Part shown: positions 22,445-25,640 of the stretch, piece by piece
Layout: the number at the start of each line of letters is the position of its first letter
Position numbering within the stretch: position 1 is the stretch's first letter
Assembly: GCA_021203865.1 (NCBI GenBank)
Contig: JAJQAJ010000076.1
Coordinates: forward strand, 1 to 45,502
DNA length: 45,502 bases
Direction: 5' to 3'
From: Clostridia bacterium
GTDB taxonomy: Bacteria; Bacillota; Clostridia; Christensenellales; Borkfalkiaceae
The notes under the pieces: model-generated
The model's input: the letters and a program-made list of their open reading frames with translations, nothing else
What the model was told of the DNA's origin: nothing
Databases searched by the model: none
Position numbers and translations under genes: made by a program

Positions 22445-23509
22445 ATGGAAACTTTGAGGCGAAACACCAAAAAGGTCATGGTGGGAGACCTTCCGATAGG
22501 CGGTGGGGAGAGGATAAAGATACAGTCAATGACGACTGCACGGACGTCCGACATAGACGCCGTGACGAGGCAGATAAAGTCCCTCGAAGACGCCGGCTGT
22601 GACCTCGTGCGCATGTCCGTTCTGGATGAGGCGGACGCAAAGGCCATAAGGTCCATAAAAGACAGGATAAAAATTCCGCTCTGCGCCGACATACATTTTT
22701 CGTCCTCGCTCGCCATAGCGGCCGTCGAAAACGGATGCGACAAGGTGAGAGTTAATCCCGGAAACATAGGCTCCGAAGCCGAAACAGAGAAGGTTGCCGC
22801 GTGCCTCAGAAGTCACAGCGTACCCGTGAGGGTGGGCGTGAATTCGGGAAGTCTCAAAAAGGAATACCTGGAAAAATACGGAAGGACGGCGGAAGCACTC
22901 GTGTCATCCGCCATGGACGAAGTCAGGCGCTTCGAGAAATTCGGGGTGCGAGACATTGTCGTGTCCGTCAAATCGAGTTCGGTGAGACTTACGGTCGACG
23001 CGTATACAGAGCTTTCGCGCGTGTGTCCCTACCCTCTGCATCTCGGCGTGACGGAAGCGGGTCTGGAAGAGAGCGCGGTCATAAAATCCGCCGCGGCGTT
23101 TTCGCCGCTTCTTTTGTCTGGCATAGGCGACACCGTCCGGGTGTCCGTGACGGGTGACCCCGTGAGAGAGATTTTAGCCGCGAAGAGCATCCTGCGCGCG
23201 CTGGAGCTTGACACCGGCTTCGCTGAGGTTATATCCTGTCCCACATGCGGCAGGTGCACATGGGACGTTCAGTCGCTTGCGGAAAAAGTCACGGAAAGGG
23301 TGAAAGGGGTCACAAAGCACATGAAGATAGCCGTCATGGGATGTGTCGTGAACGGGCCGGGAGAGGCTTCGGACGCCGACCTCGGGATAGCCGGCGGAGA
23401 CGGGTACTGCCTCATCTTTAAGGACGGAAAACCCGTGAGGAAGGTCGACGCCGCGTCGGCCGAAAGAGAGTTCATGAATGAGATAGAGGGTTTGGTGAAT
23501 GGCTTCTAA
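22445..23509 (+). CDS. ispG: 4-hydroxy-3-methylbut-2-enyl diphosphate synthase IspG
   Basis: This 354-residue 4Fe-4S enzyme acts late in the MEP isoprenoid pathway. KVMVGDLPIGGGERIKIQSM is the family start. Two cluster cysteines are in ISCPTCGRCTWDV and the third in VMGCVVNGPGEASDADLG. The start at 22445 has no Shine-Dalgarno sequence but is the only start before the conserved region. It overlaps the next gene by 11 bases, as ispG and polC neighbours do in Clostridia. Confidence 0.95.
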   Translation: METLRRNTKKVMVGDLPIGGGERIKIQSMTTARTSDIDAVTRQIKSLEDAGCDLVRMSVLDEADAKAIRSIKDRIKIPLCADIHFSSSLAIAAVENGCDKVRVNPGNIGSEAETEKVAACLRSHSVPVRVGVNSGSLKKEYLEKYGRTAEALVSSAMDEVRRFEKFGVRDIVVSVKSSSVRLTVDAYTELSRVCPYPLHLGVTEAGLEESAVIKSAAAFSPLLLSGIGDTVRVSVTGDPVREILAAKSILRALELDTGFAEVISCPTCGRCTWDVQSLAEKVTERVKGVTKHMKIAVMGCVVNGPGEASDADLGIAGGDGYCLIFKDGKPVRKVDAASAEREFMNEIEGLVNGF

Positions 23510-25025
23510 GTATTTGGATGAAGTGAGAAAAATCCCGGCGTTCAGAAGGGCGGTCCTGAAATCCGCGATATTGTATTCCGAGGCGGGAAAGCTCGTCGTG
23601 TCGCTCATAACCGAAAAGTCGTATACCCGGGAAGACAGGGACGCTTTGGAAGCCGTGACGCAAAAATTTGTGCCGTCGTCTTTCACGTTCGAGCTGGACG
23701 TCACAAAAGTGGTCGCCGACCCGGATGTCGTGAGAAGACGCGCGTTCGAACTCGCGAAGGGGCTTTCGCCGATGGTCGAGTCAACTCTTGAGCCTAGGGA
23801 CATAGAAGTCAAATGCTCCGATGACAAAGTCGAGGTTAAAATTAACCTCACGGTGTTCAGACCGACGGACGAGGCGGCGGCTCTTCTCGAAAACGCGCTC
23901 TCGAAATGTTTTTGTTCGGAAATTTCTGTTGAACTCGCGAAAAAGGAAGTGGACGAGTCGTTTCTGACGGTCGAAAAGACTGAGTATAATGAGGACTTTC
24001 ATGTCGAACCCAGGACATTCCGCGTGACGAATTTCAAGCCGATACAGAGCCGCGACGGGGGATCTGCGGAGGCCACGTACATCGCGGATGCCGGATATTC
24101 CGCCGACGACGTTGTTCTTTGCGGCGTTGTCACATCGATAGAGCATGTGGGGTACCAGAGAAAAGAGGAAGAGAAGGAGTTTCTGGTCTTCAACATAACC
24201 GATACGACGGGGGCCGCGAGGATAGCTTGCTTCCCCAGGAAGTCAGACGCGGACGAAATAGGCGCCATAAAGGAGGGTGACAGTATAGTCTGCCTCTGCG
24301 TGGCGGAGGTGAGAGGCGATTATCTATCATACAAGTCCAAAAAAATCGACTACGGCTCCGTGCCGGAAAATTTCGTGCCGGAGAAAAAGCAGAGCCGTCC
24401 CGTTCCCAAAGTTTATGAAACGGTGAAGCCCGTGCCGTACGCCGACGAGACGCAGCAAAATTTTTTCAGTGTGAAAATCGTTCCCGATTTCGTCAAAAAC
24501 AACGTCTTCGTCGTCTTTGACATTGAAACGACGGGCACGAACACCGTTGCTTCCGGCAGTATGGACAAAATTATAGAGCTCGGCGCGTGCAAAGTGATAG
24601 GAGGGGAGATAGTCGAGACTTTTTCGTCGCTTATAAATCCGGAGATAAAGCTTCCCCGCAACATTGTCGAGCTCACGCACATAACCGACGAGATGATAGT
24701 CGGCGCCCCGACATATGACAAGGTGCTTCCTGACTTTTTCAAATTTTGCGACGGCGCGTATCTTGTCGGCCACAACATAGACGGATTCGACATAAAGTTT
24801 CTGGACTATTACTGGGGCACGCTAGGCTACATAAGAAGCAGCGAAACGATAGACACGCTGACTCTTTCGATAAGCGTCTTGCCGGGTCTTTCAAACCGGA
24901 AGCTGAAAACGCTCGCCGACCACTACGGATACGAACTCGACCCTCACAGGGCATGCAACGACTCCGTCGCGACCGCGAAAGTGTTCATGGACCTCGAGGA
25001 AGAGAAAGCGAGCCGCGGACTTTGA
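23499..25025 (+). CDS. PolC-derived protein: N-terminal domain, OB fold and DEDDh exonuclease only
   Basis: The 508-residue protein sits where full-length polC (about 1,430 residues) normally lies, between ispG and rimP. Residues 1-about 200 resemble the PolC N-terminal region. Residues about 205-290 form an OB fold like that of PolC (LVFNITDTTGAARIACF). The exonuclease follows, with FVVFDIETTGTN, HNIDGFDIKF and DPHRACNDS carrying the expected DEDDh residues. There is no PHP domain (no HLH motif before the exonuclease) and no polymerase domain. The TGA at 25023 is followed by a promoter, not by lost coding sequence. It may proofread or trim DNA in trans. A complete polC could exist elsewhere. 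Confidence 0.85.
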   Translation: MASKYLDEVRKIPAFRRAVLKSAILYSEAGKLVVSLITEKSYTREDRDALEAVTQKFVPSSFTFELDVTKVVADPDVVRRRAFELAKGLSPMVESTLEPRDIEVKCSDDKVEVKINLTVFRPTDEAAALLENALSKCFCSEISVELAKKEVDESFLTVEKTEYNEDFHVEPRTFRVTNFKPIQSRDGGSAEATYIADAGYSADDVVLCGVVTSIEHVGYQRKEEEKEFLVFNITDTTGAARIACFPRKSDADEIGAIKEGDSIVCLCVAEVRGDYLSYKSKKIDYGSVPENFVPEKKQSRPVPKVYETVKPVPYADETQQNFFSVKIVPDFVKNNVFVVFDIETTGTNTVASGSMDKIIELGACKVIGGEIVETFSSLINPEIKLPRNIVELTHITDEMIVGAPTYDKVLPDFFKFCDGAYLVGHNIDGFDIKFLDYYWGTLGYIRSSETIDTLTLSISVLPGLSNRKLKTLADHYGYELDPHRACNDSVATAKVFMDLEEEKASRGL

Positions 25026-25081: not shown

Positions 25082-25110
25082 TTGCTTTTTGTCACCCATA
25101 TATGTATAAT
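25082..25110 (+). promoter_or_regulatory. Predicted promoter of the rimP-nusA-infB operon
   Basis: TTGCTT (25082-25087), 17 bases, and a perfect TATAAT (25105-25110) predict a start near 25117. Together with the following leader this begins the long translation and RNA-processing cluster. Confidence 0.65.
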
Positions 25111-25120
25111 TAGGAGCGTT

Positions 25121-25161
25121 CTTAATCTTAACCGAGATTGAGTGCCTCGAGGGGCACTCAA
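25121..25161 (+). promoter_or_regulatory. Leader with two mutually exclusive hairpins
   Basis: Hairpin A pairs 25121-25128 (CTTAATCT) with 25135-25142 (AGATTGAG), with one G.U. Hairpin B pairs 25138-25146 (TTGAGTGCC) with 25153-25161 (GGCACTCAA) around TCGAGG, nine perfect bases. They share 25138-25142, so only one can form. After B there are only four Ts. This could be an attenuator or a protein-binding site for control of the operon. Confidence 0.45.
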
Positions 25162-25181: not shown

Positions 25182-25640
25182 ATGAGTTTCAAACCCAGGC
25201 AGGAGATAGAGGAGTTTCTGAAAAAATACGCGGACCGTCTGGGACTCGAAATTGTTGAAGTCGAGACGGACGCGAAAGAGAACTCAATAACGGTGTACAT
25301 AGACTGCGAAGGCGGTGTGGATCTCGACACGTGCGAAAAGTTTCACAATGAAATCATGGACCCCATAGACGAGCTCGATCCGTCGGAGGGAGCCCCGTAC
25401 ACGCTCAATGTGTCATCACCGGGGCTTGACAGACCATTTAGGACGGCGAGGGATTTTGAAAAAAACAAGGGAGGGGATGTGGAAATCAGGCTTTACGCCC
25501 CCTACAGGGGAAAGAAGTTTCTTGAAGGCGTGCTCATTGATTTCGACGACAACAGCGTGACGGTGAAGATTGGACGGGACACAGCAAAAATAGAATTAAA
25601 CCGCATAGCCAAAATCAGTAAGGCTATAAAGTTTGAGTAG
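25182..25640 (+). CDS. rimP: Ribosome maturation factor RimP
   Basis: This 152-residue protein helps assemble the small ribosomal subunit. FLKKYADRLGLEIVEVETDA, the SSPGLDRPF motif (VSSPGLDRPFRTARDFEKN) and the GVLIDFDDNSVTVKI C-terminal SH3-like part identify it. It is the first gene after the promoter and leader hairpins. The start ATG 25182 is preceded by a modest GAGGCG site. nusA follows eight bases after its stop. Confidence 0.94.
   Translation: MSFKPRQEIEEFLKKYADRLGLEIVEVETDAKENSITVYIDCEGGVDLDTCEKFHNEIMDPIDELDPSEGAPYTLNVSSPGLDRPFRTARDFEKNKGGDVEIRLYAPYRGKKFLEGVLIDFDDNSVTVKIGRDTAKIELNRIAKISKAIKFE

What the first reader, a model, noticed from the sequence alone, without database searches (positions are those of the whole stretch)
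23499..25025. Polymerase-less PolC at the polC locus
The gene between ispG and rimP, where Firmicutes normally carry full polC, encodes only the PolC N-terminal region, OB fold and an apparently intact DEDDh exonuclease (508 residues). PHP and polymerase domains are absent and the sequence after the stop is a promoter, not decayed coding DNA. This suggests a stand-alone proofreading or processing nuclease derived from PolC, working with another polymerase, perhaps DnaE.
Basis: partly seen in the sequence, partly recalled or inferred. Interest (0 to 1): 0.75.

Follow-up and report, generated by a model that had tools for sequence, protein, structure and literature searches.

The report
Polymerase-less PolC turned clamp-bound exonuclease
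A group of Clostridia appears to have lost the copying half of one of its two DNA-copying enzymes but kept its error-removing half as a separate protein with a likely hook for the replication clamp, which would be a natural re-wiring of how bacteria check their DNA copies.

Summary
Window 23499-25025 (+) encodes an intact 508-aa protein at the polC locus (ispG-X-rimP-nusA): PolC-type N-terminal region, OB fold and DEDDh exonuclease, no PHP, no polymerase. It is neither an assembly break nor decay: 88 of 151 sampled genomes of the order (15 of 27 families) carry the short form; none of the 88 shows a PolC polymerase, and DnaE is the only full-size Pol III alpha match. A DnaE tree needs one loss of the polymerase half. 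New here: where PHP was, the linker carries a beta-clamp-binding motif (QQNFF, residues 319-323), present in 39 of 44 nuclease-intact forms against 1.8 expected. Best reading: a PolC-derived, clamp-tethered proofreader acting in trans on DnaE, as B. subtilis PolC exonuclease does (PMC5627055). Against a purely nucleolytic role: DnaE's PHP site is intact in 38 of 38, and the nuclease died in three short-form lineages that keep the protein, so a structural replisome role is plausible too. No activity or binding was measured. New variant of a known kind; the literature searches named found no description.

The parts
22445..23509 (+). ispG, upstream neighbour; its last 11 bases overlap the start of the short polC
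   Evidence: conserved order ispG-short polC-rimP-nusA
23499..25025 (+). short polC (sPolC): 508-aa PolC N-terminal region + OB + clamp-motif linker + DEDDh exonuclease; no PHP, no polymerase
23499..23948 (+). N-terminal region, residues 1-150: two alpha/beta subdomains (about 1-72 and 73-150), perhaps type II KH-like
   Evidence: AF2 models pLDDT 81.8 and 79.6; fold matches borderline; profile match to PolC
24015..24362 (+). OB domain with the PolC-type lead-in, residues about 173-288
   Evidence: (205-272)
24363..24497 (+). linker, residues 289-333, in place of the first half of PHP; conserved P-x-x-Y-x-x-V-x-P (303-311), then the clamp motif
   Evidence: lower model confidence in part of it
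24453..24467 (+). beta-clamp-binding motif QQNFF, residues 319-323
   Evidence: 39 of 44 nuclease-intact short forms carry Q-x-x-[LMFI]-[LF] in the linker, 1.8 expected by shuffling; consensus from PMC12309361 (passages)
24510..24986 (+). DEDDh 3'-5' exonuclease domain, residues 338-496 (catalytic D341, E343, D431, H483, D488)
25082..25110 (+). possible promoter TTGCTT-17-TATAAT ahead of rimP
   Evidence: read directly; below the cut-off of the scan
25138..25161 (+). 10-bp inverted repeat (hairpin) between sPolC and rimP
25182..25640 (+). rimP, downstream neighbour

Best explanation
The gene is polC after loss of its PHP and polymerase parts in the ancestor of one clade of a Clostridia order (one loss on the DnaE tree; shown by sequence). 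A DnaE with DnaE1-like features became the only full-size Pol III alpha found (shown by genome searches). The leftover N-terminal region, OB and exonuclease was kept as a separate protein, with a sliding-clamp-binding peptide in the linker where PHP had been (motif shown; binding inferred). It most likely rides on the beta clamp beside DnaE and removes mispaired 3' ends in trans, as the PolC exonuclease already does for DnaE in B. subtilis (inferred), alongside DnaE's own PHP site. The N-terminal and OB domains probably also hold a structural replisome contact, which would explain why the protein persists in lineages whose nuclease is dead (inferred).
For: Conserved ORF at the polC locus. PolC ancestry of N-terminal region and OB: 268 columns, E 1.2e-15, against 77 OB columns only with DnaE; first Foldseek match in the PDB is PolC 9qpc. 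0 of 88 short-form genomes shows a PolC polymerase with PF07733, 86 of 88 have a DnaE match, while the same search finds PolC in full-PolC relatives such as G025. One change full/short on the DnaE tree, SH-aLRT 100. DEDDh intact in 44 of 58 short forms read. Clamp motif in 39 of these 44, expected 1.8; 1 of 14 in nuclease-dead forms, and there off the usual place. In the close trio L004/L005/L009 the exonuclease has the lowest dN or ties for it (0.09-0.13, N-terminal region 0.36-0.43). Published: PolC exonuclease proofreads DnaE in trans, and polymerase-dead PolC stimulates DnaE, slightly more with DnaN (PMC5627055 sections 3.7, 3.8).
Confidence: 0.6

Rival explanations
1. Structural replisome subunit: the N-terminal and OB domains, with the clamp peptide, keep an architectural contact that PolC used to make (clamp, clamp loader, SSB or DnaE); nuclease activity is a secondary, losable feature and DnaE PHP does the proofreading.
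For: Nuclease residues lost in three short-form lineages while a protein of 485-548 aa is kept in the 14 read in full; the one usable nuclease-dead pair (L108/L114) has dN/dS about 0.38 at dS 1.2; the linker motif around Y306 and P311 is visible in dead forms; DnaE PHP intact in 38 of 38.
Against: 44 of 58 read forms keep all five catalytic residues and the exonuclease is among the slowest-changing parts in close nuclease-intact pairs; the clamp motif tends to go when the nuclease goes, as if it served the nuclease, though three lineages are few.
Confidence: 0.22
2. Processing or repair nuclease rather than proofreader: trims 3' ends in mismatch repair, gap repair or primer handling, recruited by the clamp.
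For: A MutS match is present in 22 of 24 genomes checked, so mismatch repair could use a clamp-bound exonuclease; a solo copy of the exonuclease in the window genome lies upstream of miaB and mutS on C79.
Against: No repair gene among the neighbours looked for at the main locus, which are nrdR, ispG, rimP and nusA; the domain set is that of a polymerase-attached proofreader; of the two genomes without a MutS match, G061 keeps the nuclease and G043 has lost it, so no pattern.
Confidence: 0.13
3. Artefact or decay: truncated polC from an assembly break, or a pseudogene on its way out.
For: The window genome is a 98-contig assembly.
Against: 88 of 151 genomes of the order, 15 families, have the short form; rimP follows some 100-300 bp after the stop in the loci where both were seen, except L023, where a solo exonuclease copy lies between; constraint in close pairs; no PolC polymerase in any of the 88.
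Confidence: 0.02

Closest known systems
PolC (Bacillota replicative polymerase; structures of E. faecium PolC, 9QPC/9QRN)
   Same: Same locus; N-terminal region, OB and DEDDh exonuclease in the same order; first Foldseek match
   Different: No PHP, no polymerase, no C-terminal clamp motif; a clamp motif sits between OB and exonuclease instead
Pol III epsilon / DnaQ (E. coli) and the mycobacterial DnaQ
   Same: Separate DEDDh exonuclease polypeptide in a cell whose only full-size replicative polymerase found is a DnaE; clamp-type motif in a flexible stretch
   Different: Scores higher with PolC and some other DEDD families than with epsilon equivalogs; carries extra N-terminal and OB domains; motif is before, not after, the exonuclease (epsilon arrangement recalled)
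PolC lacking the exonuclease, in Clostridia and Negativicutes (PMC3919608, section 'Domain architectures' read)
   Same: Another clade-specific domain loss from PolC in the PolC + DnaE1 group
   Different: Reciprocal case: there the polymerase stays and the exonuclease goes
Trans-proofreading of DnaE by PolC in B. subtilis (PMC5627055, sections 3.7 and 3.8 read)
   Same: Same proposed activity: PolC-type exonuclease correcting DnaE from outside
   Different: There the nuclease is part of a complete, essential polymerase; here the polymerase is gone

Membership tests
PolC DNA polymerase | PolC N-terminal region and OB ahead of the exonuclease | tested here: met
   hhalign 268 columns, E 1.2e-15. 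Against: a Pfam scan of 13 short forms listed no PolC N-terminal family; full PolCs were not scanned as a control
PolC DNA polymerase | DEDDh exonuclease of PolC type | tested here: met
   best NCBIfam match PolC PRK00448, 145.6 bits, far under its whole-protein cut-off of 873 and only just above a DEDD family at 143.1; residues intact
PolC DNA polymerase | PHP domain split by the exonuclease | tested here: not met
   absent in Pfam scan and alignment
PolC DNA polymerase | Pol3 polymerase core and helix-hairpin-helix | tested here: not met
   ORF ends after the exonuclease; no PolC polymerase in the rest of the genome by PF07733
PolC DNA polymerase | clamp motif at the C-terminus | tested here: not met
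   8 of 8 full PolCs of the order that were read have it there; the short protein has it at 319-323
DnaQ/epsilon proofreading subunit | separate DEDDh exonuclease polypeptide | tested here: met
   TIGR00573 dnaq domain model 95 bits, cut-off 71.5
DnaQ/epsilon proofreading subunit | sequence membership of the epsilon equivalog | tested here: not met
   NF004316 76.8 bits, cut-off 196; TIGR01406 71.6, cut-off 222.7
DnaQ/epsilon proofreading subunit | stable contact with the DnaE polymerase | not testable with these tools
   no complex prediction offered
sliding-clamp client | QxxLF-type peptide in a flexible stretch | tested here: met
   39 of 44 nuclease-intact forms against 1.8 expected; residues 319-324 under pLDDT 50
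sliding-clamp client | measured binding to the clamp | not testable with these tools
   needs purified proteins
type II KH-like domains (predicted for the PolC N-terminal region, PMC3919608 passage) | alpha/beta fold matching solved KH type II domains | tested here: inconclusive

The most novel reading that the evidence does not exclude
A clade of Clostridia has changed from a two-polymerase to a single-polymerase replisome by cutting one polymerase down to a non-polymerase subunit, which gained a clamp peptide, and this subunit is a general replisome part whose nuclease can be dispensed with: a 'pseudo-polymerase' accessory factor with no counterpart in model bacteria.
Probability: 0.3. Interest if true: 0.85.

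Novelty: new variant of a known kind. Interest (0 to 1): 0.74.

Why it matters
PolC and DnaE are both essential in B. subtilis, and how bacteria change between PolC + DnaE and DnaE-only replication is open; PMC3919608 (passage) considers loss of PolC as one path. This clade looks like a preserved intermediate: the polymerase is gone, the proofreading half remains with a clamp peptide of its own, and in three sub-lineages the nuclease is lost too. It makes trans-proofreading by PolC, known to me from B. subtilis, testable as a dedicated subunit. [quoted passage not shown] Inference: these bacteria should not be targets of inhibitors of the PolC polymerase, although relatives in the same order that keep PolC may be.

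Tried and rejected
Assembly break or pseudogene: rejected. Hidden PolC polymerase: not found with PF07733 in any of 88 short-form genomes; second matches in G000, G104, G128, G136, G172 are small DnaE-like ORFs (279-368 aa) and in G080, G094 pieces of one DnaE. Only PF07733 was used for this; other polymerase models were not run.

Loss of DnaE PHP as the reason for keeping the nuclease: rejected, PHP signature intact in 38 of 38 (one search had failed to extract one of 18).

Mismatch-repair link by presence of MutS: no pattern. Exonuclease tree for ancestry: mostly unresolved (1 starred branch of 31); it only placed the two solo copies beside the window protein. dN/dS: most pairs are saturated for dS; only the closest are usable, and among genus g19 pairs OB and exonuclease change at about the same rate. 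N-terminal fold search: no PolC or tau structure listed, borderline matches only. rimP was not found in G020, G010 and G039, so the locus of G039 was reached through ispG.

Short forms outside the order: none in a class sample (5 of 118 genomes short, all five in the order; for the other 69 with E <= 1e-60 the best match lies in an ORF of 1113-1592 aa; 44 had no match at that threshold) nor in a phylum sample (1 of 398 at E <= 1e-85, the window genome itself; at most three candidates a genome were scored, and 377 unmatched genomes were not listed).

Name of the order: not obtained. I think of Christensenellales in GTDB terms from memory, untested; the named records are only 'Clostridia bacterium' and the like.

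Print: searches listed no paper that I recognised as describing a polymerase-less PolC family. Seen: PMC3919608 sections 13, 14 and passages; PMC12926913 section 14 and passages; PMC5627055 sections 22, 23 and passages; PMC12309361, PMC12592400, PMC11890065, PMC13003532 passages; PMC3774996 first part of three; the rest as listings. Supplements and most subscription papers could not be seen.

Full report
What is there. Window 23499-25025 (+) is an intact ORF of 508 codons starting in the last bases of ispG; rimP and nusA follow. Pfam finds the exonuclease (PF00929, residues 338-496) and a weak OB match. NCBIfam ranks a PolC-type polymerase first (145.6 bits, cut-off 873), just ahead of a DEDD exonuclease family (143.1), so the exonuclease alone does not settle ancestry. 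Among PDB sequences only the exonuclease matches, best a PolC exonuclease (2p1j), then E. faecium PolC.

Not an artefact. Of 24 same-genus genomes, 20 have an ORF of 493-518 aa, three have pieces, one (G020) has no match. In an order-wide sample of 151 genomes (at least 90% complete), I sorted the listing by hand: 74 have a short form matched through the exonuclease (one, G044, lies at a contig end; five, G070, G101, G136, G159 and G169, are listed with one stop inside the matched stretch, not looked into), 14 a short form whose match fades inside the exonuclease, 45 have the exonuclease inside an ORF of 959-1650 aa, and 18 fit none of these at this threshold. The 88 short-form genomes belong to 15 of the 27 families in the sample. 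Of the 18, G039 and G095 proved on reading to have a short form with a dead nuclease after ispG, and G036 a full PolC with a dead exonuclease; the other 15 were not read.

One polymerase only. PF07733 over the same 151 genomes gives, for the 88 short-form genomes, one match in 79, two in 7 and none in 2 (G060, G130). The seven second matches are a split DnaE (G080, G094) or small DnaE-like ORFs (G000, G104, G128, G136, G172). So 0 of 88 shows a PolC polymerase. The same search detects PolC in full-PolC relatives, as two lower-scoring pieces beside DnaE. DnaE of the window genome has PHP, palm, clamp motif, OB and a C-terminal part. In 38 DnaEs read from short- and full-form genomes, the PHP signature HHDHEHCDH and the palm aspartates are intact in all 38.

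History. On a tree of these 38 DnaEs (quick search, LG+G4), full and short forms are split by one branch (SH-aLRT 100), so one loss of the polymerase half suffices; the root is not inferred, but full PolC is what the class sample shows outside the order. Nuclease death needs four changes: f19, f28/g68, f16 and, among full PolCs, f13. No short form was found outside the order in samples of 118 (class) and 398 (phylum) genomes, with the limits told under tried and rejected.

The clamp motif. In the linker, where PHP was, lies QQNFF (319-323). I aligned 58 short forms (18 of the 38 then held, 40 more). Of 44 with all five catalytic residues, 39 have Q-x-x-[LMFI]-[LF] in the linker; shuffled linkers give 1.8. 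Misses: three of genus f6/g6, one other f6, one f1/g18. The consensus QL[S/D]LF or QxxLF is from PMC12309361 (passages). The eight full PolCs read have their motif at the C-terminus. Residues 319-324 are low-confidence in the model, as expected for a flexible peptide. Of 14 nuclease-dead forms only one has a motif by this pattern, at another place; several keep Q and the fourth position but not the fifth. Motif and nuclease thus tend to go together, but the dead forms are three lineages only, so this is suggestive, not proof.

Function. The pieces, a PolC-type exonuclease with intact catalytic residues, a clamp peptide and a genome whose only full-size Pol III alpha found is a DnaE, point to trans-proofreading. 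There is direct precedent: in B. subtilis DnaE recruits PolC to mispaired ends, exposes them to the PolC exonuclease, and a polymerase-dead PolC stimulates DnaE synthesis, a little more with DnaN (PMC5627055, sections 3.7 and 3.8). The short PolC is like a natural polymerase-less version of that reagent. Against a purely nucleolytic role stand the intact PHP of DnaE and the persistence of nuclease-dead forms. In the close trio L004/L005/L009 the exonuclease has the lowest dN or ties for it (0.09-0.13); in genus g19 pairs it is about level with OB; the one usable dead pair (L108/L114) has dN/dS about 0.38 at dS 1.2. I give the proofreader reading 0.6 and a mainly structural reading 0.22; both may hold.

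Known or new. PMC3919608 describes PolC + DnaE1 and DnaE1-only Clostridia and PolCs without the exonuclease, but removed fragments without a polymerase active site. PMC12926913 finds three active-looking proofreaders in most Clostridia and assigns stand-alone DnaQs only by homology to tested ones or by modelled complexes (section 14). Searches listed no paper that I recognised as describing this protein family. I call it a new variant of a known kind: the parts are known; the rearrangement and its clade-wide fixation are not, as far as I could see.

Noticed in passing
L071:3574-4215 (window genome, G000:C79:18082-18699) and L023:7564-8181: Solo copies of the exonuclease (213 and 205 aa) without N-terminal region, OB or clamp motif; catalytic motifs still recognisable. 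Tandem behind the short polC in L023; in the window genome beside thiI and upstream of miaB and mutS (MutS match begins 4.1 kb further on). The two group with the window protein.
   Followed up: partly
L080:1069-2079 (G000:C87): 336-aa DnaE-like ORF beside a ferritin-like gene (named by eye); the palm region is recognisable but the catalytic PDxDxD stretch is replaced. Similar small ORFs (279-368 aa) in G104, G128, G136, G172, not read.
   Followed up: partly
L104-L117; L164:2649-4016; L165:3-1490: Short PolCs whose exonuclease has lost all or nearly all catalytic residues while the protein keeps its length (14 by alignment, two by eye).
   Followed up: yes
L077 (G036) PolC: A full-length PolC with polymerase but a dead exonuclease (S, R, S, T, E at the five catalytic places), family f13.
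   Followed up: partly
window:24405-24431: Second conserved linker motif P-x-x-Y-x-x-V-x-P (residues 303-311; Y306 in 39, P311 in 41 of 44) ahead of the clamp motif, partly visible in nuclease-dead forms; partner unknown.
   Followed up: no
G058 (family f11): PF07733 finds only DnaE and the short-PolC profile matches weakly; perhaps a separate loss of PolC, or an assembly gap.
   Followed up: no
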